A stretch of 64,000 bases of DNA, taken from assembly GCF_002954265.1 (NCBI RefSeq), contig NZ_PPSL01000005.1, forward strand, positions 310,001 through 374,000. Direction: 5' to 3'. Positions 11,908-22,351 of the stretch are shown here, one piece after another. Made by a program: the position numbers and the translations under genes. Source of the DNA: Flavipsychrobacter stenotrophus. GTDB lineage: Bacteria > Bacteroidota > Bacteroidia > Chitinophagales > Chitinophagaceae. A model generated the notes under the pieces. It searched no databases. It saw nothing but the letters and a program-made list of their open reading frames with translations, and was not told the DNA's origin. Position 1 is the stretch's first letter; every line of letters starts with the position of its first letter.

Positions 11908-12927
11908 ATGAAAAGCTTTGCCAGTGATAATTATGCCGGTGTGCTCCCTGAAATGATGGAAGCCCTACACAATACCAATACAGGCCATGCACGCTCTTAC
12001 GGGGCAGATGATATAACTAAGCGCACCACAGAACTAATGCGCAAGGTTTTTGCAGCCGACTTATCGGTATACTTTGTGTTCAATGGCACCGGGGCTAATG
12101 TGCTCAGCATCAGCAGTGCTACCCAATCTTATAACTCGATACTTTGCTCCGACACTTCCCATATCTATTGCGATGAATCATCAGCACCGGAGACTTTTAC
12201 AGGGTGCAGATACTTCGCTATTCCGGCTAATGAACATGGTAAGCTAACACCTGACGCTATAAAGGAAAGACTGATTCGCAAGGGAGATGTACACTACGCG
12301 CAAACAGCAATGATCTCTATTACGCAGACTACAGAATATGGTACGCTGTACACACCCGAAGAAATAAAAGCGATCAGTGATCTGGCACATGAACATGGCC
12401 TGTACCTGCATATGGACGGTTCAAGGTTTTTTAATGCGGCAGCTGCGCTTGGTTGCGAGCTGAAGGATATAAGCAGCGCAGCGGGTGTGGATATATTATC
12501 TCTGGGTGGTACAAAGGCAGGCATGATGTATGGTGAGGCCGTTATTGTCTTCAATAAGGAACTGGAGAAGCACATAGCATTCAAGCATAAACAAGTGATG
12601 CAATTAGCGTCTAAAACACGCTTTATAGCGGCACAATTTGAGGCTATGCTCACTAATGAACTGTGGCGTAAAACAGCAGCACATGCCAATGGTATGGCGC
12701 AGTTGCTACATAGCGCATTATCAACATTCGCTGATGTGAAATTTACCCGCCCCGTACAGGCCAATGCATTGTTTGCAGAGATACCGCGCCACTGGTATGA
12801 ACCACTACAGCAGCACTTCCCATTTTATGTATGGAAGGACAGTACACATGAGGTGCGAATGATGTGCTCATGGGATACGGAGGAAGAGGATATAGCGAGA
12901 TTTAAGGAGGCGATAAGTAAGTTATAG
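11908..12927 (+). CDS. ltaE: Low-specificity threonine aldolase (PLP enzyme)
   Basis: A 339-residue fold-type I PLP enzyme of the beta-eliminating lyase/threonine aldolase family, cleaving threonine or allo-threonine to glycine and acetaldehyde. It shows MKSFASDNYAGVLPEMMEAL at the start and the active-site HMDGSR (D170, R173). The PLP lysine is K203 in LSLGGTKAGMM. The residues after the lysine are GMM rather than the GAP seen in many family members, so substrate preference could differ. Length is typical. It is transcribed alone, divergent from the secreted protein gene, and has its own terminator. Confidence 0.88.
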   Translation: MKSFASDNYAGVLPEMMEALHNTNTGHARSYGADDITKRTTELMRKVFAADLSVYFVFNGTGANVLSISSATQSYNSILCSDTSHIYCDESSAPETFTGCRYFAIPANEHGKLTPDAIKERLIRKGDVHYAQTAMISITQTTEYGTLYTPEEIKAISDLAHEHGLYLHMDGSRFFNAAAALGCELKDISSAAGVDILSLGGTKAGMMYGEAVIVFNKELEKHIAFKHKQVMQLASKTRFIAAQFEAMLTNELWRKTAAHANGMAQLLHSALSTFADVKFTRPVQANALFAEIPRHWYEPLQQHFPFYVWKDSTHEVRMMCSWDTEEEDIARFKEAISKL

Positions 12928-12968
12928 TTGCCTGAACCTTGATGGCAATGATTGAATGATGGACTATG

Positions 12969-12999
12969 ATGCCCGTTGGATATTTCTGACGGGCATTTT
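12969..12999 (+). terminator. Intrinsic terminator after ltaE
   Basis: ATGCCCGT (12969..12976) pairs with ACGGGCAT (12989..12996) and is followed by a T-rich run. Confidence 0.85.
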
Positions 13000-13040
13000 T
13001 TATTTTTCATAATAAAGACTCAAGCAGAACCAACCTGATG

Positions 13041-13064
13041 GTTGTTGGTCATAAGACCAACAAC
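13041..13064. repeat. Perfect 10-bp stem hairpin GTTGTTGGTC/GACCAACAAC
   Basis: GTTGTTGGTC, loop ATAA, GACCAACAAC. It lies between the ltaE terminator and the terminator of the convergent gene, with no T run, so it is not a standard terminator. Function unknown. Confidence 0.6.
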
Positions 13065-13120
13065 GCCAGAAGGGAAAAGTATGCGACACCAACAAGAATA
13101 AGCTTGGTGGCATTGCCTAA

Positions 13121-13155
13121 AATAGAAAAGCCCCGAATATCGGGGCTTTTCTATT
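13121..13155 (-). terminator. Intrinsic terminator after the T9SS cargo gene
   Basis: A 16-bp perfect stem, AATAGAAAAGCCCCGA against TCGGGGCTTTTCTATT, with a three-base loop. T runs are embedded on both strands. It sits 21 bases past the stop of the gene at 13176. Confidence 0.85.
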
Positions 13156-13175
13156 GAATGATATATAACTATTGA

Positions 13176-14477
13176 TTAGTGAGCTACTACTATCTGCTTA
13201 ACGATCTGGCCGTTAGTACCGCTGATCTTTACAACATAGTTACCTGTAGCGAAATTCTGCGTAGGTATGCTAGCTGTGTAAGAAGCTGTAGAAGGAACTG
13301 ACCACTGGCGAACCACACTACCGTTCATATCAAAGATAGAAACAGTGAATGCCTGAGCATCGTTCCAGTTAACCTTGAAGTTAACAACATTCTGAGCCGG
13401 GTTAGGGAAGATATTCACTTCACCGTTAGCAGTTACATTGTTTACAGCAGAAGTACCACCTGTGTAAGTTTCGTAGTAGTAGTTAGCAGCACGATCGCCG
13501 TTAGCATGCTCCCAGAAACCTGCAACGTTCCAAGACTCAGCAACTGTATTAGTCAGCTGGTTGAAAGAGTTGTAAGAGTAAGTATGCTCCTGGTTGTTCT
13601 TCCAGAAACCACCACCTGTAGTATCCCAAACCTGATCGATCTCCATCTGAGGCATCATGCTTACGAAACTGCTGTAGTTGTTAAGGGTAACATTTTCCCA
13701 TGCAGCTGTAGTAGTGTTATAAGTCTGGTACAAAGATGTTGTACGGTCGTTACTTGCATCGTAAGTGTAGTTATACATGTAAGAAGGCACCCATGTAGCA
13801 CCGTTCCAAACACTATAAGTAGTGCTGGCAAGCATGTTACCGGTAGTGTATGTATAGTCAAACTTATAAGCGTAAGAATAGGTCATTGTTACATTGCTGT
13901 AAGTCTGTCCGATCTCCTGAATGAGATTACCACCTACACTGTAGAAGTAAGTCTTCTGAGAAGAAGCGTCGAAAGACAATGTAGTGCTGTTCCATGTCTG
14001 GTGCTGATCAGAATACAAGCGGTTACCCAATGTATAGCTGTAAACATTCCTGGAAATATTTACCCAGTTAGTACCGCCCCATACCTGAGCTACAGAAGTA
14101 TCAACATTGTTGCTACCATCGTAAAAATGCAAAGTTTTAGTTGCGTTCTCCCATGCAGTACCATTCCAGAAAGTACGTGTCTGGCTGATAATGTTGTTAT
14201 TAGCATCAAACTGCTGATAAACAGTAGAATCACTTGTATAAGTAGTATCTCCCAACAATACTTTCCAAGAAGTAGCAGTATTGTATTTCAACGTGTGCAT
14301 CAAATCACCACCTCTAGGGTTAGTGTATGCATAAGACGTACTGTCGTTAAGCAAGAAAATAGCACCATTGTTATACCAACCCGCCTTGGCAGCCAGCCTG
14401 GATGATGTCTGTGCCTGTACATTCTGTACAAGAAGAACAGGTATTGCAAGTGTGAAGAGTAGCTTCAATCTTTTCAT
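13176..14477 (-). CDS. Secreted protein with T9SS type A sorting domain and Trp/Tyr-rich repeats
   Basis: About 433 residues. Signal peptide MKRLKLLFTLAIPVLLVQNV is followed by a repetitive body. Units of about 45-50 residues contain WNGTAWENA, WGGTNWVNI, WNGATWVPS and similar Trp pairs, alternating with Tyr-rich strands of YD-repeat flavour. The last 75 residues form a type A T9SS C-terminal sorting domain (VNIFPNPAQNVVNF; NGQIVKQIVVAH), so the protein is exported by T9SS and probably attached to the surface or released. The start at 14477 is chosen because the signal peptide begins there. Role unknown; adhesion is a guess. Confidence 0.85.
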   Translation of the reverse strand: MKRLKLLFTLAIPVLLVQNVQAQTSSRLAAKAGWYNNGAIFLLNDSTSYAYTNPRGGDLMHTLKYNTATSWKVLLGDTTYTSDSTVYQQFDANNNIISQTRTFWNGTAWENATKTLHFYDGSNNVDTSVAQVWGGTNWVNISRNVYSYTLGNRLYSDQHQTWNSTTLSFDASSQKTYFYSVGGNLIQEIGQTYSNVTMTYSYAYKFDYTYTTGNMLASTTYSVWNGATWVPSYMYNYTYDASNDRTTSLYQTYNTTTAAWENVTLNNYSSFVSMMPQMEIDQVWDTTGGGFWKNNQEHTYSYNSFNQLTNTVAESWNVAGFWEHANGDRAANYYYETYTGGTSAVNNVTANGEVNIFPNPAQNVVNFKVNWNDAQAFTVSIFDMNGSVVRQWSVPSTASYTASIPTQNFATGNYVVKISGTNGQIVKQIVVAH

Positions 14478-14877
14478 AAATGGCAATTTAAATATTGTAA
14501 TAGTTGTGTACAAAAGAAAAACTGTACAATGATAGTAATAATTTTCTGTAAAGTGCAACTTTTTTGAAAAATTTGTTCAATCTGTTATTCTTTGTTGGGA
14601 AATAAGGGGTTAGGGGCCTATTTGGTATTCACATGGGTTAATATTATTGTTTATAAAGAGGTATTTGTTGATGAGGTTTGTGCTCATTAAAATGATCCGA
14701 TTTTTAGAATTCGTAGAATAAACAGATCGTAAAAAAGAGTCGCCCGACGGCTGGTGGTCGGGAGACACAACAGCGGCAGATGGGCACTATTCAGCAGAAA
14801 GGTTACTCGGTGCGGCGCCAAAGAAAAAAGCCTTCCGTATATCGGAAGGCTTTGGAAAATATAGAATTGTTACAAAA
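14478..14877. other. Intergenic stretch without a gene
   Basis: 400 bases with no supportable coding frame. It should hold the promoter of the T9SS cargo gene (A/T-rich bases 14480..14640) and, at the other end, the terminator of the RelA/SpoT-like gene. An imperfect CCCGAC/GTCGGG hairpin lies near 14743..14764. Confidence 0.5.
14829..14853 (-). terminator. Intrinsic terminator after the RelA/SpoT-like gene
   Basis: AGCCTTCCG pairs with CGGAAGGCT across a short loop. On the minus strand the stem is followed by TTTTTTCTT. Confidence 0.8.
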
Positions 14878-16632
14878 CTATTTAAGGGTAAGGTGAGACG
14901 CGATCGGCTTCTCGTTCTTGCTGATAGAATTGTAAGTAGGAATAATGAACCTGGCACTGTAGTCGTTATCAGAGATAAACTTCAGCACATACTCTACCGC
15001 AAAGGCCGGATCGTTCTTCTTACCTACCAACAGATACTCAAGATAGAAAAGGCAAATACCAGAATCAAATGAGCCGCCATTGTCTTTACCTATCCACTTT
15101 TCAGCAAACAAGATGATATCGTTCTTATTGTCTACAACCCTTTCGTGGAGTTGTTTCAGAGAATACACTTTCAGGTATTTCAATCTTTCTACATCACCTT
15201 CTACATCTACTTCATTATTCAAAGTAGCACCTGCACGACGGGCTATCTCACTATCTACTTCTTTTATCAACTTACTCGCGGCAACATATTGCTTCAACGT
15301 AGCATCTGTCATCTGTGAGTTTTCATCCATTACAGCCGCCTTGATCGGTTCTGGTTCACGCTCATAAAATGGCACCTCTTCGCTGTTTATATTAGCCTGT
15401 GTGCCGTTTCCTACACCATTAATGTACGTGTTATTAGTAGCAACGTTCACTGTATTGGCTGCAACGTTTACTGTTTCGGCAGACAAAGCAGGTATTTCAT
15501 CTTCTACTTGATGCACCTGCTCTATTACAGGCACATGGCTGACATGGTTAACTACTTCCTCAATTTTATTTTCCACAATCTGCGGCAAAACAGGCTGAGC
15601 TATTTCGTGCGGCTGTGTTGCCGTATTAATTACAGGCAATATCTCTTCTATTGCCGGTGCAACATACTGCTGAATAGGTTGTGTAGGTATTACTACCGGT
15701 GCTACATATTTTTCTACAACGGGCATTACCTGAGCAACAACGGGTGCAACAGGCACAGGCGGTGGCGCAGGTATTGGTTGTGGTGCAGGCGTAGGCAAAG
15801 TAAGATCAAAAGGCCCCTGCATGCCATTTACCGGTGCGGCTTGCTGCTGTGGTATGTATTCATTTACAGGTGCTGCTGCAACCGGCTGCGGTGCGGGCTG
15901 TGCAACCGGCTGTGGCTGCGCTACTACCTGAGGCGCGTATTGCGCTGCCGGCAATGGAATTTCATTGACTACAGGCTGCGGAACAGGTGCAGATTGGCGG
16001 ACAGGAGCGGGTTGAGGTGCAATTGCCGCTACCTCTTCGTTCTGCTCATATGCTGCCTGTTCTACCCAATTGTATTTAGCATTCAGCTGACTGCGTATCT
16101 TCAGAAATTCCAGATCGGCCATTTCAAGCAGGGCACCAACCCTGTAGAAATCACGCTTCATTTCCTCCGGGAAAGTAGCATTATCATATCCAAGCTCCTT
16201 TTCTATACCAGCCCATGCATCCTGCAGCATAGAGCATACGTGGATCTCAAACTTTTTCGTTCCAGACCTGCGGTACTCTATCAGCTCCTGACGGGCAGGC
16301 TTTAAACCTGCTGTCAGCTGTATATGTTTGTATGAAAAGCTATCGAGCTTTATTTTCTTTTTGTCTTTTGAGCGCTCATTCATCACATCAAATTCCGACC
16401 CTACGATCTCAGATATTTTACTAACTGAGTCTTCGAAGTAAGTAATGACCCTGATGACAGGAATATATATATTCTCGCCTGAGCTACTATGCTGGTGATC
16501 CATCCGCGACTCTATCCGGTAATATGGTACATTGTTCTGGATAATGATCTCCTTAACCAACTCTTCCATTTTCATCATGAACGCACTATTGCTTTCGATT
16601 GATGATTGATATTTCTTTGACGGCATACTCAT
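14878..16632 (-). CDS. Degenerate RelA/SpoT synthetase-like domain with Pro/Gln/Val-rich linker
   Basis: A 584-residue cytoplasmic protein. Residues 25-185 align by eye with RelA/SpoT (p)ppGpp synthetase domains of the soluble type: IRVITYFEDSVSKISEIVGS (60-79), an EYRRSGTKKFEI stretch (119-130), then LQDAWAGIEKELGY (136-149). A helical tail follows (RVGALLEMADLEF). Key catalytic positions are altered. The GYxSxH motif reads SYKHIQ (100-105); the ExQxR motif reads EIHVC (129-133), keeping only the Glu. The usual DLxGIR acidic residue is absent (IPVIRV). Residues 205-395 are low-complexity Pro/Gln/Ala/Val, and 415-584 form a helical domain I do not recognise. Start at ATG 16632; a TTG at 16647 is possible. 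I infer a non-catalytic, perhaps nucleotide-binding or scaffolding, paralogue. Confidence 0.8.
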   Translation of the reverse strand: MSMPSKKYQSSIESNSAFMMKMEELVKEIIIQNNVPYYRIESRMDHQHSSSGENIYIPVIRVITYFEDSVSKISEIVGSEFDVMNERSKDKKKIKLDSFSYKHIQLTAGLKPARQELIEYRRSGTKKFEIHVCSMLQDAWAGIEKELGYDNATFPEEMKRDFYRVGALLEMADLEFLKIRSQLNAKYNWVEQAAYEQNEEVAAIAPQPAPVRQSAPVPQPVVNEIPLPAAQYAPQVVAQPQPVAQPAPQPVAAAPVNEYIPQQQAAPVNGMQGPFDLTLPTPAPQPIPAPPPVPVAPVVAQVMPVVEKYVAPVVIPTQPIQQYVAPAIEEILPVINTATQPHEIAQPVLPQIVENKIEEVVNHVSHVPVIEQVHQVEDEIPALSAETVNVAANTVNVATNNTYINGVGNGTQANINSEEVPFYEREPEPIKAAVMDENSQMTDATLKQYVAASKLIKEVDSEIARRAGATLNNEVDVEGDVERLKYLKVYSLKQLHERVVDNKNDIILFAEKWIGKDNGGSFDSGICLFYLEYLLVGKKNDPAFAVEYVLKFISDNDYSARFIIPTYNSISKNEKPIASHLTLK

Positions 16633-17317
16633 TATATTAAAGTACAATAATAAGTAGATTTTCGAGTAATAGGTAAAAAAAGGGGGCAGTTTAACAACCG
16701 ATTAAGGAAATAGATTCTTAGTACGTCTGGAAACAACAGAAAGTTATCCACATTTAATTCACAGGAAGATGGCGAAAATTAGGTTCACATAAGTAATGGC
16801 TCTTCATAATTTTACGAATGAACATTATAATTAATTTTAGATAAATTGCATAATGTGGTCGTCTGAACTGCCTGCGGGTGATAATGGCTATCTGATCTCT
16901 CACCTGCCGGCCACAGTAACCACAAGAAAATGCCCACGACTTTTACGATAAATAACGAGGTATTATTTATACACCAATACGAAAACGCCCTGTGCGAATG
17001 CCGCCCTTCGACATGTTTAGACGATATTCGGGGGTGTGCTTGCGGAGCACCAAATAATGGATGTGTGGCTACAAGGGTCCCTGAATAGCATCTCGAAGTT
17101 GTCGTTATGACGATGCACCTTGATAGTTCTGCATAGCGTTCCTTTACACTGGGGTAAGAGGCGGCCGCTCTGTATGCTATATGCCTGTTATGAACGTGTG
17201 CTAACTGCGGCGCGCAAAAGAGCATTACAGCACCCATATATTACATAGCGCTAATAAGATAAGGCTATGGAACAATTTTAGTACTTTTACGCCTTTATTA
17301 ACCTTAACTGTTCCGGC
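16633..17317. other. Long intergenic region, nothing recognised
   Basis: 685 bases between divergent genes. A 141-codon minus-strand frame at 16812..17237 exists but has no start context and is rich in rare residues (Cys, His, Trp). Local hairpins include GGTG..GCT/AGC..ACC near 17033..17051. The first 170 bases are A/T-rich and should hold the promoter of the RelA/SpoT-like gene; the last 60 hold a weak TACTTTTA box at 17282..17289 for the exporter. Confidence 0.4.
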
Positions 17318-19687
17318 ATGTGGCATAATATAGCCGCTTTTATTATAAAATTTCGTATTGCATTATTAGTAATCCTCCTATCTATCACCGGCATAATGGG
17401 CTATTATGCTATGCAGGTGAAGTTGAGTTACGAGTTTACCAGTGCGGTACCTACCGACAATCCTAAGTATATAGAGTACCAGAAATTCAGAGCTGAGTTT
17501 GGGGAGGATGGTAACCTGATGGCGATTGCGGTGAAGACAAAGGATTTCTTTGCTCCCGAATTCTTTAATGACTATGCATTGCTGGTTAAAAAAATAGCTA
17601 AGGTAAATGCCGTAGAAAATGTGTTGAGTGTGCCTGGTGCAATAGCCCTGGTAAAGGACACCGTTACCCAAAAGCTGAAAGCGATGCCTATAGCCGGCAC
17701 ACCACCCTTCAGTAACGTAGATAGTATCAAACAAACGTTTTTAAGCCTGCCATTTTACAAAGGACTTCTTTATAACCCTGATTCTAATGCCTACCTGATG
17801 ACGGTGTGGATACAGAAGGATGTACTGAATTCTAAGGGCCGTGCCGATGTGATCAATGAAATTGTAAGACTGGGCAACGAGTTTGGCGTGAAGCATAATA
17901 TAGAAATGCACTATTCAGGTTTGCCACTGATCCGCACTGAAATGGCTATGCGTGTACAGCACGAAATGCGCCTTTTCCTCATACTCTCCTTTGTACTTAC
18001 CGCTGTTATCCTGGCCTTATTCTTCCGCTCGGTGGCGGCAGTAATAGCGTCTATGCTGGTAGTGGCCATAGGGGTTATATGGTCTGTAGGAACTATAGAA
18101 TTACTGGGCTATAAAATAACATTGCTTACTGCACTCATTCCGCCGCTGGTAGTGGTGATCGGCATCCCCAACTGCGTATATCTGCTCAATAGGTATCACT
18201 TTGAATATGCCAAAAACCCTAACAAAATGCGCTCGCTATTGCGCATGGTTGACAGAATGGGCATAGTAACTTTCTTTACCAATCTTACGGCAGGTATTGG
18301 GTTCGGCGTATTCTTCTTCACTAAAAGCGTTTTACTAAAGGAATTCGGACTGGTAGCGGGAATCAACATCCTTGGCCTGTTCTTTATTTCGCTTGTATTC
18401 ATACCGGCATTGTTCAGCTTCCTGCCGCCGCCTAATGTGCGCCACACCAGCTACCTGGAAAGCGGATGGATAAACAAACTGCTGGAAAAGATAACCAAAT
18501 GGGTGTTCAGCCACAGAACGTGGATATATGCGTTTACAATAGTGGTCTGCGTATTTTCGGTATGGGGCGTAATGCGTCTGAAGAATGATGCACACATTGT
18601 AGATGATCTGCCAAAATCTGATAAAATTTACCTTGACCTGAAATTCCTGGAGAATAATTTTAAAGGTATAATGCCGCTGCAGATAGTGATAGATACCCGT
18701 AAGAAAAACGGAGTAGCATCGCTGGAAGTATTAGGCAAGATGGACAAGCTTTGCAAGTACCTGGAAACCTACCCGGAAATAGGTCGTCCATTAGCAATAA
18801 CTGAGGGCATTAAATTTGCCAACCAAGCCTATTTTGGTGGCGACCCCATTTATTATGAAGTACCCGAAGATCCTATACAGGCGGCATTTGTACTCCCCTA
18901 CCTGCGTACCAAGGGCGGAGATAATAATAGCATGTTCTCTAAGCTGTTGCACTCTTTTGTAGACAGCACCAAGAGCAAGGCTCGTATCAGTGTGAATATG
19001 GCCGATATAGGCTCTCACCGACTGCCCATAATGCTGGGTAAGATAAAGCCTGAAGTAGATAAGATATTTGATTCAACCAAGTATAAAGTAACCTTTACCG
19101 GAACTAGTGTAACCTTCCTTGAAGGAAGTAAGTTCATAGTAAACAGTCTCCGTGATAGTTTGATACTGGCGTTCCTGTTCATCTTTGGTTGCATGGTAGC
19201 AGTATTCCGCTCGTGGAGAATACTCGTGATATCAATTATCGTCAACATCGTTCCGTTATTAATAACAGCAGGCCTGATGGGCTGGATGGGCATCCGTATA
19301 AAACCATCTACTGTACTTGTATTTAGTGTGGCATTAGGTATTACTATTGATGTTACTATTCGCTTCCTGGTAAACTTTAAGCAGGAACTGGCGCAGCATG
19401 ATGACAGTATTGCAGACACAGTACACCGTACCATACGCGATACAGGACTAAGTATCATCTATACTTCATTGATATTGGTAGCCGGCTTTGGCGTGTTTGC
19501 ATTGTCTCAGTTCGACGGGACCAAATCGTTAGGCTATCTTACTTCTATCACATTATTGCTCGCAATGGTAACCAACCTTACCTTGCTGCCTGCTTTACTG
19601 CTTTGGATGGATAAGGTGATAGAGAAGAAGAACAATGCAGTTTCCTTCCTGATGGGAGAAGATGAGGATGATGTGATCAAGATGTAA
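17318..19687 (+). CDS. MMPL/RND-superfamily exporter
   Basis: A 789-residue inner-membrane protein with the duplicated MMPL architecture. Each half has one membrane helix, a large periplasmic loop, then a bundle of five helices: about residues 12-30, 215-370, 400-420 and 620-775. Sterol-sensing-like helices include LVVVIGIPNCVYLLNRYHFE and, in the second half, VFSVALGITIDVTIRFLVNF; the acidic residue pattern suits a proton-driven pump. Related proteins export lipids or hopanoid-like hydrophobic compounds. It lacks an adjacent adaptor or outer-membrane channel. Transcribed alone, with a terminator at 19762. Confidence 0.88.
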   Translation: MWHNIAAFIIKFRIALLVILLSITGIMGYYAMQVKLSYEFTSAVPTDNPKYIEYQKFRAEFGEDGNLMAIAVKTKDFFAPEFFNDYALLVKKIAKVNAVENVLSVPGAIALVKDTVTQKLKAMPIAGTPPFSNVDSIKQTFLSLPFYKGLLYNPDSNAYLMTVWIQKDVLNSKGRADVINEIVRLGNEFGVKHNIEMHYSGLPLIRTEMAMRVQHEMRLFLILSFVLTAVILALFFRSVAAVIASMLVVAIGVIWSVGTIELLGYKITLLTALIPPLVVVIGIPNCVYLLNRYHFEYAKNPNKMRSLLRMVDRMGIVTFFTNLTAGIGFGVFFFTKSVLLKEFGLVAGINILGLFFISLVFIPALFSFLPPPNVRHTSYLESGWINKLLEKITKWVFSHRTWIYAFTIVVCVFSVWGVMRLKNDAHIVDDLPKSDKIYLDLKFLENNFKGIMPLQIVIDTRKKNGVASLEVLGKMDKLCKYLETYPEIGRPLAITEGIKFANQAYFGGDPIYYEVPEDPIQAAFVLPYLRTKGGDNNSMFSKLLHSFVDSTKSKARISVNMADIGSHRLPIMLGKIKPEVDKIFDSTKYKVTFTGTSVTFLEGSKFIVNSLRDSLILAFLFIFGCMVAVFRSWRILVISIIVNIVPLLITAGLMGWMGIRIKPSTVLVFSVALGITIDVTIRFLVNFKQELAQHDDSIADTVHRTIRDTGLSIIYTSLILVAGFGVFALSQFDGTKSLGYLTSITLLLAMVTNLTLLPALLLWMDKVIEKKNNAVSFLMGEDEDDVIKM

Positions 19688-19761
19688 TCAATTTGACAAT
19701 TCGGCAATTTGGCAATGCGATAATATTCATGCCGTTGTATTTGCCTGATCAATAGTTTATG

Positions 19762-19800
19762 AAATACCCACTGATCTACAATGATTAGTGGGTATTTTGT
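19762..19800 (+). terminator. Intrinsic terminator after the MMPL exporter
   Basis: AATACCCACT (19763..19772) pairs with AGTGGGTATT (19786..19795), followed by TTGTTTC. Confidence 0.8.
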
Positions 19801-19873
19801 TTCTACTATTTTCTTGCCGTATATCTGGTTCACGGAAAGGCTAACAATGGTTGGAAAGAAATTTAGGTGATAA

Positions 19874-20398
19874 TTATACAACCCCTGATTCCAGCAGAGC
19901 CTTGCGCTGTGGTAAGTCTGCATGTATTGCCTGTTGTATGAGGTCCAGCAGCTTTTGGTTGTTTACGTTTACATTATCCATCCAGATATTCAGTTCCTGA
20001 AAACCCAGTTCTTTATTGAACTTTACAACAGACCTGTATAACCGCCCTTTACTGCGAGCGAGAGAATACACTTCATCAACCTTCAGGCAAACAAAGTGCT
20101 GCTTATTTATCCGGGCCGGATAGGCATCTTGAATGATGTCCCAATTGATAATTTTATCGCTGAGGTTGCGAACGAAAATGCCTGTTTCGTTGAGTATGAT
20201 CTGAGGCCTGCGGTCGAGAATAAATGAAAGCCCTAGTGGGTATCCTAAACCAAAGAACCCAATACACAATAGAAACTTTAACCTTTCCCTTTCCTCACCC
20301 TTTACTAAGAAAAATATGGACGGAATAACAAACAGTGAAGACATCAAGATAAACTTAACTCCCTTCCATGCAGATTTGTAGATCTTTATTTCATTCAT
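19874..20398 (-). CDS. Two-helix membrane protein, STM3941-like
   Basis: A 174-residue protein. Two membrane helices (about 14-32 and 42-60) are followed by a beta-rich cytoplasmic domain beginning LDRRPQIILNETGIFVRNLS. That pattern resembles the STM3941/PH-like membrane family of unknown function. It lies 14 bases after ubiA and is the last gene of the DUF1573-ubiA operon. The family assignment is by eye. Confidence 0.65.
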   Translation of the reverse strand: MNEIKIYKSAWKGVKFILMSSLFVIPSIFFLVKGEERERLKFLLCIGFFGLGYPLGLSFILDRRPQIILNETGIFVRNLSDKIINWDIIQDAYPARINKQHFVCLKVDEVYSLARSKGRLYRSVVKFNKELGFQELNIWMDNVNVNNQKLLDLIQQAIHADLPQRKALLESGVV

Positions 20399-20412
20399 GG
20401 TAAACCAGACGC

Positions 20413-21309
20413 TTATAGCATTTTACCGATGTAAATGGAAAGTATAGTAATAGCCGAAAAAACAACACTGGCAATGCCGTTGGTATTGCCGAAAGCAATG
20501 TTGATCTTACTCAGGTCTGTGGGCTTTACCAGTAGGTGCTGGTAGGTAAGTGCACCTATATAGAAAGCGGCACCTATCCAGTATACAAAGTTGAAGTGGC
20601 CATAAACCCCGGCATACCACACAAAACACGCAGATACAACATGCAACAATGTAGAGACGATCAACGCATTGCGCACACCGAGTGCAGCCGGTATAGAGTG
20701 CAACTTCTGACTTCGGTCGAAAGACTCATCCTGCAAGGCATAAATGATGTCGAATCCCGATACCCAGGTAAAGACCATAAATGAGAAAAGGATAGGCAAC
20801 AGATCGAACTTGCCTGTAACTGACAGGTAAGCCCCTATTGGCGAAAGAGAAAGACCAACACCTAATACCAGGTGACATAGTGCGGTAAAACGCTTGGTAT
20901 AGCTATAGAACAGGATAACGAACAGTGCTACAAATGACAAGTAAAAACAGGCCTCGTTAATAAACCAGGTAGTAGCTACAAACAATACACAATTGAGAAT
21001 GGTAAAGGCCAGCGCATGGTTAGGCTTTATAACACCCGCGGGTATCTCTCTGACAGCAGTACGGGGATTAAGCGCATCAAAGCGACGATCGAGATAGCGA
21101 TTGAAGGCCATAGCGGCACTACGTGCAAAAACCATGCACAGCAACATTTTACCGAAGCCGGCCAATTTATTATACGGTTCTGTAACCGTAGTAATGGCCA
21201 GCACAAACCCTATTATTGCAAACGGCAAAGCGAAAACAGTATGACTGAATTTTATCAGGGATAGGTAGCTCTTTACTTTAGCTATTGGCGATATGCTCAC
21301 TGTATTCAT
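20413..21309 (-). CDS. ubiA: UbiA-family polyprenyltransferase
   Basis: A 298-residue integral membrane prenyltransferase with eight to nine helices. Both Asp-rich motifs are present: NRYLDRRFD at 70-78 and GFDIIYALQDESFD near 185-198, which bind the polyprenyl diphosphate via magnesium. It joins a polyprenyl chain to an aromatic acid. Bacteroidota respire with menaquinone, so the real role may be in menaquinone synthesis (an MqnP-like enzyme of the futalosine route) rather than ubiquinone; no other pathway gene is here to decide. It starts 3 bases after the DUF1573 gene. Confidence 0.88.
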   Translation of the reverse strand: MNTVSISPIAKVKSYLSLIKFSHTVFALPFAIIGFVLAITTVTEPYNKLAGFGKMLLCMVFARSAAMAFNRYLDRRFDALNPRTAVREIPAGVIKPNHALAFTILNCVLFVATTWFINEACFYLSFVALFVILFYSYTKRFTALCHLVLGVGLSLSPIGAYLSVTGKFDLLPILFSFMVFTWVSGFDIIYALQDESFDRSQKLHSIPAALGVRNALIVSTLLHVVSACFVWYAGVYGHFNFVYWIGAAFYIGALTYQHLLVKPTDLSKINIAFGNTNGIASVVFSAITILSIYIGKML

Positions 21310-21312
21310 AAA

Positions 21313-21840
21313 TTATCTTACTTCTGCCTCTACTGTAATAGATACGGCCTCTGGCAATGCATTGGAGTGTACTACAATGTTCTTTTCTTCGTGGCCTGCA
21401 TGGCCTTCGCTATTGTACAATATCGTTATCTCCCCATCACTGCCGGGGGCAATTGATTCCAGCGGGAAGTTAGGCGTAGTACAACCGCAGGTAACGTCGG
21501 TCTTAGCGATCATCAACGGATTTTGTCCGGTATTCTTAAAACGGAAAACGTGGGTAACAATGCGGCCAACACTTACAGAGCCAAAGTTGAACTTAGTTTC
21601 ATAGAATTGCATAGTGGTCTTTGGCATTTCTGCTACTATCTGGCTGCGGCTGCGTGTTTGTTCGGGATAAATTTCACCGCGGTACACTTCACCATCTCTT
21701 GAATAAAAGACACCTTCACCACCACTATGAAATTTCCTGAACATGGCATTCTTACTTACACCGGTCAGTTCAACAATGGTCAGCGTAAAAATTGACAATG
21801 TAAGTATGGTCAGTAAAACGTATTTATAATTAGTATCCAT
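21313..21840 (-). CDS. DUF1573 domain exported protein
   Basis: About 175 residues with an N-terminal membrane anchor or signal (residues 6-28). The DUF1573 domain spans about 75-170 and includes FNFGSVSVGRIVTHVFRFKN and the Cys pair in TDVTCGCTTPNFP. DUF1573 is an Ig-like fold of unknown role, very common in Bacteroidota. The ATG at 21840 is chosen because a signal begins there; the longer frame adds 12 unlikely residues. First gene of the operon with ubiA. Confidence 0.85.
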   Translation of the reverse strand: MDTNYKYVLLTILTLSIFTLTIVELTGVSKNAMFRKFHSGGEGVFYSRDGEVYRGEIYPEQTRSRSQIVAEMPKTTMQFYETKFNFGSVSVGRIVTHVFRFKNTGQNPLMIAKTDVTCGCTTPNFPLESIAPGSDGEITILYNSEGHAGHEEKNIVVHSNALPEAVSITVEAEVR

Positions 21841-21928
21841 GAGGGATATCTTAAGTTTACAGCAAATATATGCCAAAACGCCTTAGCCGTGTAGCAAACA
21901 CGTGCATAACTGGTTATCAATAACTAGC

Positions 21929-22351
21929 TTATAACATCTTTTTAAGGGTGCAGTCTATGTCGGCAGTCACTTTATGCCGGTCTTTATCAAGGGGTTGAAG
22001 GCTGCCATCGGCATTTAAGACATAGTGCATCGCCTTTTCTTCATTGTCGTAGTTAAGGATGATCATCAGTACTTTACGGCCTTCAAATATGTCTTTAGCT
22101 ATGATCCATTCACCACTGATGCGGGAGGTAACATCTGTGCCCCCCTTGCTTACATACTTGTCGCGCAGAGAAAATTCTCCGGTGGTATCGGTCCCGTATT
22201 TCAGATCCAGGCTCGTTTCTATGATCTTACATTCTTCGCAGGGCAAATTACCTTTGTACGTTCCGGCAACCATTTGCTTCTGAACTTCCTGCGCCACAAC
22301 GAAATAGGAAAACAAAAAACTTACAGTAATTAGAAGAATATGCTTGATCAT
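21929..22351 (-). CDS. NlpE N-terminal-like envelope protein
   Basis: A 140-residue protein with a signal peptide (about 1-20). It matches the NlpE N-terminal domain: MVAGTYKGNLPCEECKIIET near residues 27-46 contains the CxxC pair, followed by a beta-barrel-like pattern (GEFSLRDKYVSKGG; GEWIIAKD). In enterobacteria NlpE is an outer-membrane sensor of copper and envelope stress. This one lacks a lipobox and the C-terminal OB domain, as do most Bacteroidota relatives, so metal binding or stress sensing is inference. Confidence 0.8.
   Translation of the reverse strand: MIKHILLITVSFLFSYFVVAQEVQKQMVAGTYKGNLPCEECKIIETSLDLKYGTDTTGEFSLRDKYVSKGGTDVTSRISGEWIIAKDIFEGRKVLMIILNYDNEEKAMHYVLNADGSLQPLDKDRHKVTADIDCTLKKML

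What the first reader, a model, noticed from the sequence alone, without database searches (positions are those of the whole stretch)
14878..16632. Degenerate alarmone-synthetase fold fused to a Pro/Gln linker and a helical domain
Residues 25-185 keep the scaffold of soluble RelA/SpoT synthetase domains (IRVITYFEDSVSKISEIV; LQDAWAGIEKELGY). The catalytic motifs are changed: GYxSxH becomes SYKHIQ, ExQxR becomes EIHVC, and the acidic residue before GIR is missing. A 190-residue low-complexity linker then joins a second helical domain. Loss of several key residues while the fold is kept suggests a repurposed nucleotide sensor or a scaffold. The homology is read by eye; the loss of function is inference.
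Basis: partly seen in the sequence, partly recalled or inferred. Interest (0 to 1): 0.7.

Follow-up and report, generated by a model that had tools for sequence, protein, structure and literature searches.

The report
Dead alarmone synthetase kept as adaptor
A bacterial gene carries a stress-signal enzyme whose active site has been dismantled but whose second half has become its most conserved part, which suggests that an enzyme related to ones carried by phages was turned into a binding or scaffolding protein.

Summary
The 584-aa protein (14878-16632, minus strand) has an N-terminal RelA/SpoT synthetase fold (Pfam PF04607, phrog_9640, AlphaFold2 plus Foldseek to RelQ/RelP) with a dismantled active site, a disordered Pro/Gln/Ala/Val-rich linker and a helical domain. 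One part of the reading is wrong: the helical domain is not a new fusion. It is the ancestral C-terminal half of a two-domain small alarmone synthetase (SAS) family found in phages, a prophage and plasmids (phrog_9640). There the halves lie 11 residues apart; here 130-448.

The protein belongs to a monophyletic set of 35, conserved in a few Chitinophagaceae genera (11 of 11 genomes of its genus). All 35 lack both ATP-site lysines and the ExQxR arginine; 34 lack the Mg aspartate and the G-loop serine. dN/dS is low. Conservation is inverted: among active-type relatives the C domain is less conserved than the N domain in 231 of 231 pairs; here it is more conserved in 555 of 561. I read it as a retained, dead SAS used as a two-headed adaptor whose C domain binds a fixed partner. 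Catalytic loss and domain origin are well supported; partner and process are unknown.

The parts
14878..16632 (-). whole ORF, 584 aa pseudo-SAS (stop codon included)
   Evidence: 35 distinct homologues, own copy included, aligned
16066..16605 (-). N-terminal RelA/SpoT-synthetase-fold domain (aa 10-189), catalytic residues lost
   Evidence: PF04607; phrog_9640 positions 24-205, E 3.6e-32; Foldseek to RelQ/RelP; residue tables
16087..16167 (-). retained post-catalytic helix, first part of the 42-residue helix 156-197 (aa 156-182)
   Evidence: R, F, R, E and D of this helix kept in 35 of 35; helix 156-197 in the model
15319..16077 (-). Pro/Gln/Ala/Val-rich linker (aa 186-438), disordered in the model from about aa 198
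   Evidence: P+Q 27%, P+A+V+Q 57% (row L001 = own protein); block pLDDT 38-60 over aa 191-420; 130-448 aa in the 35 family members, 11 aa in active-type relatives
14881..15333 (-). C-terminal helical domain (aa 434-584), the most conserved part
   Evidence: A2: mean column identity 81%; homologous to the C-terminal half of active-type SAS; block pLDDT 84-98 over aa 441-570
16744..16752 (+). single exact DnaA-box-like 9-mer TTATCCACA upstream of the gene; possible regulatory site, weak
   Evidence: only exact match in the 64-kb window, where 0.7 is expected by chance; exact 9-mer in 12 of 34 upstream regions of the family versus 2 of 169 control upstream regions

Best explanation
The gene encodes a pseudo-enzyme derived from a two-domain small alarmone synthetase of the kind found in phages, a prophage and plasmids (phrog_9640). 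Catalytic residues are lost: both ATP-site lysines and the ExQxR arginine in every homologue compared, the Mg aspartate in all but one, and the guanosine-site loop is altered or gone. The fold, the long helix after the active site and the C-terminal domain are held by purifying selection. I infer that it now works as a two-headed adaptor: the C domain docks on a conserved cellular partner, the N domain still self-associates or binds a second partner through its retained helices, and the 130-448-residue disordered linker lets the two heads act independently instead of being locked 11 residues apart as in the active-type enzymes. Shown: homology, loss of catalytic residues, purifying selection, single origin, ancestral C domain, lengthened linker, inverted conservation. 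Inferred: lack of activity, direction of descent (mobile enzyme to host gene), adaptor role, self-association. Unknown: the partner and the process.
For: Fold. Loss of catalytic residues, 35 pseudo copies against 53 active-type relatives that keep each of them 53 of 53: ATP-site Lys47 to Glu/Asp in 33 and Val/His in 2; Lys55 deleted in 35; ExQxR Arg148 to Cys/Ser in 35; LQHAW His153 to Asp in 35; His160 lost in 35; Mg Asp71 lost in 34 (L041 has Asp there, L047 Glu); G-loop Gly115, Ser118, His120 lost in 34 each. Glu134, Arg176, Glu186, Asp189 kept in 35 of 35 and 53 of 53. Selection, 12 pairs: dN/dS 0.012-0.090 in the N domain (6 pairs with finite dS), 0.008-0.041 in the C domain (8 pairs), 0.077-0.338 in the linker (6 pairs). 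Single origin: 35 rows on one branch, support 100/100. C domain ancestral: L065 E 1.7e-28 at its own C terminus; phrog_9640 positions 222-342 E 3.2e-9; hhalign 99.6%. Linker: 11 aa in 21 of 23 measured viral copies and in L065, against 130-448 in 35. Conservation at near-equal N-domain identity: pseudo family N 54%, C 77% (C higher in 555 of 561 pairs); active-type N 56%, C 21% (C higher in 0 of 231 pairs). The own genome keeps a long RSH with intact motifs, so alarmone synthesis need not depend on this protein.
Against: No partner, expression, activity or binding data. Self-association is assumed from the known RelQ tetramer and from helix conservation; no complex was predicted. Some acceptor-site residues survive in part of the family (G-loop Tyr in 19 of 35, Glu of ExQxR in 29 of 35, Gln in 17 of 35), so weak nucleotide binding is possible. 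8 of 35 genomes of the second genus, 3 of them among the 25 good assemblies, lack the C domain, so it is not strictly indispensable there. The tree is unrooted, and of the three cellular active-type relatives used only L061 was seen among phage-like ORFs; the surroundings of L064 and L065 were not examined. So capture from a phage is a guess. The C domain has no solved structural neighbour (best E 1.8). The C alignment of active-type copies is harder and those copies were chosen by their match to A2, so their 21% is rough.
Confidence: 0.6

Rival explanations
1. It is still a nucleotide sensor: the former guanosine pocket or the inter-subunit cleft binds (p)ppGpp, GTP or another ligand and the signal passes to the C domain.
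For: G-loop Tyr kept in 19 of 35 (own copy included) and Glu of ExQxR in 29 of 35. RelQ binds pppGpp in an allosteric cleft formed by alpha1, beta1 and alpha4 (PMC5794853, passages).
Against: The G-loop pattern is gone in a well supported nine-row branch. ATP-site Lys is replaced by an acid in 33 of 35; LQHAW His (by my alignment by eye the place of RelQ Asn148, which contacts allosteric pppGpp) is Asp in 35 of 35. Mean net charge of the N domain is -5.0 against -1.8 in active-type, though the ranges overlap and the window's own N domain is -2. A flexible 130-448-aa linker is a poor relay between sensor and C domain.
Confidence: 0.15
2. It is a decoy or dominant-negative that poisons incoming phage- or plasmid-borne SAS relatives by mixed oligomers or by competing for their C-domain target.
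For: Active-type relatives occur in phage and plasmid records (53 viral loci; 28 phage and 62 plasmid records match L065). L065 matches a PADLOC candidate defence family, PDC-S33, E 1.3e-17. The non-catalytic helix is kept.
Against: Extreme conservation of the C domain is the opposite of an arms race; in CapRel the phage-sensing C-terminal region is described as the least well conserved part (PMC9712102, passages). The window protein itself has no PADLOC match at E up to 0.1.
Confidence: 0.1
3. It binds RNA (tRNA or mRNA) and acts in translation or RNA modification.
For: A truB-like gene (tRNA pseudouridine-55 synthase; named from its recalled sequence motif, not from a family search) lies directly upstream on the same strand in 22 of 35 loci. 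RelQ has an RNA-bound state and some toxSAS bind tRNA (PMC5794853 and PMC11782079, passages).
Against: Both domains are acidic on average (N -5.0, C -5.1). No truB neighbour in the window or in the nine loci that I take for its genus (L020-L025, L032-L034; some with little upstream sequence), nor in L036, L047, L049. The 110-222-bp gap carries a separate promoter-like element (18 loci).
Confidence: 0.15
4. It is a decaying pseudogene or a chance resemblance.
For: Loss of catalytic residues.
Against: Open frame in 35 distinct homologues, dN/dS far below 1, confident fold.
Confidence: 0.01

Closest known systems
phrog_9640 (phage protein family, function not given; matched by active-type two-domain SAS)
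   Same: Both halves match in order: N domain positions 24-205 (E 3.6e-32), C domain positions 222-342 (E 3.2e-9). L065, an active-type protein, matches positions 6-341 of 365 with E 1.4e-89.
   Different: Catalytic residues lost, 130-448-aa linker instead of 11, C domain conserved instead of variable; carried on host chromosomes in a fixed set of genera.
RelQ/SAS1 (YjbM) and RelP/SAS2 (YwaC) small alarmone synthetases
   Same: Synthetase fold.
   Different: ATP/Mg site lost, altered G-loop, extra C domain and linker; 14-20% identity in the structural alignments to the SAS chains listed.
CapRel (toxSAS with C-terminal pseudo-zinc-finger sensor)
   Same: Synthetase domain plus C-terminal domain; Foldseek match 7ztb E 2.6e-4 over 183 columns.
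   Different: Active toxin whose sensing C-terminal region is variable (PMC9712102, passages); here catalytic residues are lost and the C domain is conserved and has no PDB structural match at E under 1.
Degenerate synthetase or hydrolase domains in long RSH proteins (RelA HD; SpoT synthetase of Moraxellaceae)
   Same: Loss of one RSH activity while the protein is kept (PMC3153485, passages).
   Different: Those keep the other enzyme activity; this protein has only a synthetase domain.

Membership tests
RelA/SpoT synthetase fold (PF04607) | profile score at or above the curated cut-off | tested here: met
   26.9 bits for the whole protein (cut-off 27, missed by 0.1); 29.8 for the N domain; 30.2 in the genome search. 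At E up to 1, 22 of 35 members match.
RelA/SpoT synthetase fold (PF04607) | three-dimensional fold | tested here: met
   of 39 PDB matches at E up to 0.001, the best 37 are SAS chains and the other two CapRel (predicted model)
active (p)ppGpp/(p)ppApp/tRNA pyrophosphokinase | ATP-site Arg/Lys/Ser/Lys, Mg Asp, GYxSxH G-loop, ExQxR | tested here: not met
   both ATP-site Lys and the ExQxR Arg lost in 35 of 35; Mg Asp, G-loop Gly, Ser and His lost in 34 of 35 each; the first ATP-site Arg kept in 12 of 35. Roles from PMC11782079 and PMC5794853 (passages).
active (p)ppGpp/(p)ppApp/tRNA pyrophosphokinase | enzyme activity | not testable with these tools
   no biochemistry available
phrog_9640 two-domain SAS | N synthetase domain and C helical domain in one chain | tested here: met
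phrog_9640 two-domain SAS | short fixed spacing between the domains (11 aa in 21 of 23 viral copies and L065) | tested here: not met
   130-448 aa in 35 of 35
toxSAS toxin-antitoxin module | active toxin with adjacent or fused antitoxin | tested here: not met
   catalytic residues lost; no PADLOC match for this protein; window neighbours include a secretion-tail protein and an MMPL transporter; a dedicated antitoxin search was not made
RelQ-like oligomer | tetramer with central cleft | not tested
   no complex prediction was run

The most novel reading that the evidence does not exclude
A pseudo-alarmone-synthetase family: an SAS of phage-borne type was captured by one bacterial lineage, lost catalysis, and its former regulatory C domain became the main functional part, joined by a long disordered tether. 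It would be a core adaptor that controls growth, translation or replication without making any alarmone, possibly under DnaA-box control.
Probability: 0.3. Interest if true: 0.8.

Novelty: new variant of a known kind. Interest (0 to 1): 0.58.

Why it matters
Small alarmone synthetases are studied as enzymes and as phage-defence toxins. A lineage in which the catalytic residues are gone but the protein is under strong purifying selection would show that the accessory C domain has a target of its own. It gives a direct way to find that target: pull down with the frozen C domain, whose relatives in phages are listed without a function (phrog_9640). It also warns against counting every PF04607 hit as an alarmone producer.

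Tried and rejected
New fusion of a helical domain: rejected, the C domain is ancestral. Note a circularity: A5, used, holds the 24 of 53 viral copies chosen because they matched A2; the tests by phrog_9640 and L065 do not depend on that choice. In one search A2 matched 1 of the 20 RelA/SpoT-like proteins given; in the viral set 29 of 53 did not pass 1e-4.

Origin of replication: TTATCCACA upstream suggested oriC or DnaA control. Only 3 exact boxes lie in 400 kb of the contig, with no cluster of three within 400 bp and no sign change of GC skew at the gene that lasts; dnaA lies 152 kb away. oriC rejected; DnaA control left open. A tandem form, up to 1 mismatch, was found at 20 places in 11 of 17 genomes, 8 of the 20 upstream of this gene; 6 of 17 genomes, own genome included, had none; the reversed-pattern control gave 3 places in 2 of 17 genomes. 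Other places lay beside mutS-like and other genes.

C domain against Pfam, PDB sequences and PDB structures: nothing convincing. NCBIfam: nothing for this protein. Rfam at gathering threshold, window 12000-22000: nothing. Single-sequence search of viral contigs: no relative; of phages: 3 records, about 20% of the query covered. Foldseek against viral models gave 6 matches at E up to 0.001, the best named RelA/SpoT.

Literature: no report of a pseudo-SAS was seen in the listings (open-licence PMC papers only; listings cut to 10-20 rows). PMC4255298 came up for 'lacks catalytic residues'; the passage concerns WhiA, not RSH.

Rows dropped before counts: of the loci held, L042 (first part of the frame missing), L050 (fragment) and L055 (active-type) were left out and duplicates merged, giving 35. 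Of 53 viral copies, 3 with ORFs under 300 aa (L129, L137, L164) were left out and of the tree; 24 of 53 went into A5. L009 was left out of A2 because it is truncated. In one search one of 24 viral spacings could not be measured.

Full report
What is there. The minus-strand ORF 14878-16632 encodes 584 residues. Residues 38-151 match PF04607 RelA_SpoT at E 6.4e-6, 26.9 bits against a cut-off of 27; the N domain alone scores 29.8. PHROG 9640 matches the protein at E 2.4e-40, the N domain at 3.6e-32 and the C domain at 3.2e-9, in the right order. By sequence alone solved structures are reached only weakly (3l9d, E 0.9, 0.073). A full-length AlphaFold2 model from 62 sequences gives confident N and C domains and a linker with block pLDDT 38-60 over aa 191-420. 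Foldseek against solved structures puts small alarmone synthetases first (2be3, 5ded, 5dec, E about 3e-7), with CapRel at 2.6e-4.

Where it occurs. All 11 genomes of the window's genus that were searched have it (79 genomes searched, 11 matched, all of this genus). The C-domain profile matched 19 of 394 genomes of the family, in 3 of 101 genera, 1 of 295 genomes drawn from the class, the own one, and 27 of 35 genomes of a second genus, 22 of 25 among good assemblies. A scan of genome contigs gave 36 loci: 35 in records named Flavipsychrobacter, Taibaiella, Chitinophagaceae, or only Chitinophagia, Bacteroidia, Sphingobacteriales or Bacteroidetes, and one active-type relative in a deltaproteobacterial bin (its ORF shows GYMSLH and EIQVR).

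Active site. I compared 35 distinct pseudo copies with 53 active-type relatives (50 of 53 viral-contig copies plus L061, L064, L065) (full counts in 101). Positions kept in 53 of 53 active-type rows: ATP-site Arg45 (12 of 35 pseudo copies keep it), Lys47 (Glu 21, Asp 12, Val 1, His 1), Lys55 (deleted in 35), Mg Asp71 (34 lost; L041 has Asp, L047 Glu), G-loop Gly115 (34 lost), Tyr116 (19 keep it), Ser118 (34 lost), His120 (34 lost), Glu144 (29 keep it), Gln146 (17 keep it), Arg148 (Cys 23, Ser 12), His153 (Asp 35), His160 (Lys 29, Arg 5, Ala 1), Lys165 (none keeps it). No copy keeps Lys47, Lys55 or Arg148. Kept: Glu134, Arg176, Glu186, Asp189 in 35 of 35 and 53 of 53; Tyr135, Phe178, Arg180 in 35 of 35 but only part of the active-type rows. 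The roles of such residues in other SAS are taken from PMC11782079 and PMC5794853 (passages); the mapping is mine.

The second domain is ancestral. L065, a 356-aa frame with intact motifs from the same class, matches the pseudo-family C-domain profile over its residues 220-353 with E 1.7e-28 (1 of 20 proteins given matched). In viral contigs 24 of 53 copies match it with E below 1e-4. Profile-profile comparison gives 99.6% probability (chosen rows, see Tried and rejected). In the active-type proteins the distance between the domains is 11 residues in 21 of 23 measured viral copies (13 and 19 in the others) and 11 in L065; in the pseudo family the linker has 130-448 residues, median 263, median P+Q 22%, 7-44%. 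So only the tether is new.

Selection has moved. Within the pseudo family the mean pairwise identity over 561 pairs is 54% for the N domain and 77% for the C domain, C above N in 555 pairs. Among active-type viral copies it is 56% and 21% over 231 pairs, C above N in none. The two sets have nearly the same N-domain identity, so age alone does not explain it; the C alignment of the active-type set is harder and may exaggerate. dN/dS over 12 pairs is 0.012-0.090 (N, 6 with finite dS), 0.008-0.041 (C, 8) and 0.077-0.338 (linker, 6). Several dS values exceed 1, so the ratios are rough, but none is near 1.

Descent. A maximum-likelihood tree of 88 N domains puts the 35 pseudo copies on one branch (100/100, length 1.04) and the 50 viral copies on another (99/90). 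Active-type relatives occur in phage and plasmid records (53 viral loci; L065 matches 28 phage and 62 plasmid records, most over part of its length), for example beside terminase and portal genes in a Bacteroides finegoldii plasmid record. L061, from the window's own family, lies between ORFs that I read by eye as phage tail proteins. They also occur in cellular genomes whose surroundings I did not examine (36 of 395 genomes of the phylum match L061, the own genome and some long RSH included). Capture from a mobile element is the simplest reading, but the tree is unrooted.

Own genome. The only other PF04607 match is a 755-aa long RSH which shows GRPKAINS, YDLFAIR, GNGYEALH, VEVQIRS and the hydrolase HD motif. 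Alarmone synthesis therefore need not depend on the pseudo protein.

Neighbourhood. In 22 of 35 loci a truB-like gene lies directly upstream on the same strand, with gaps of 110-222 bp in the 18 loci measured. The 13 others are the window, L020-L025 and L032-L034, which I take for the same genus, and L036, L047, L049; some hold little upstream sequence. Upstream regions share a block ending in a TAnnnTTG element that resembles the Bacteroidetes -7 box (recalled), often with TGTGGATAA, the complement of the DnaA box TTATCCACA (box recalled): exact in 12 of 34 family upstream regions against 2 of 169 control upstream regions (Fisher p 5e-9, not corrected for relatedness). The gene is not at oriC.

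Function. A protein without catalytic residues under strong selection, with its most conserved part in a domain that varies in its active relatives, is best explained by a new fixed partner of that domain. The long tether uncouples the two heads. I call it an adaptor; whether the N domain self-associates as RelQ does was not tested. Sensor, RNA-binding and decoy readings are given as rivals. Against a plain charge argument: the mean net charge of the N domain is -5.0 against -1.8, but the ranges overlap and the window's own is -2. For the decoy: L065 matches a PADLOC candidate defence family.

Novelty. The fold and degenerate RSH domains are known (PMC3153485, passages). An SAS lineage that has lost its catalytic residues as a whole, is conserved across genera and is inverted in its conservation was not seen in the searches. 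I rate it a new variant of a known kind.

Noticed in passing
window 16744-16752 and upstream regions of 33 relatives among L020-L054: DnaA-box-like TTATCCACA (exact) upstream of this gene in 12 of 34 loci against 2 of 169 control regions; in several relatives it sits just before a conserved promoter-like block.
   Followed up: partly
phrog_9640; L113-L165; L166:2995-4068: phrog_9640, listed as unknown function, is matched over nearly its full length by L065, which has intact SAS motifs; a relative lies in a B. finegoldii plasmid record next to phage terminase and portal genes.
   Followed up: partly
L026-L031, L035, L037-L046, L048, L051-L054: truB-like gene directly upstream of the pseudo-SAS gene on the same strand in 22 of 35 loci.
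   Followed up: partly
L065 (active-type relative): Matches the PADLOC candidate defence family PDC-S33 (E 1.3e-17), while the window protein does not.
   Followed up: no
L062: A relative with intact GYxSxH and ExQxR motifs in another genus of the family has its reading frame interrupted by a stop; described only.
   Followed up: no
genome G991, contigs C49 and C188: Two copies of the C domain in one genome, one divergent; duplication or contamination.
   Followed up: no
window 13176-14558: Protein with a Por secretion C-terminal sorting domain next to the gene; its cluster recurs in 9 of 35 loci.
   Followed up: no
window 19874-20398: 174-aa ORF with no Pfam match at E up to 1.
   Followed up: no
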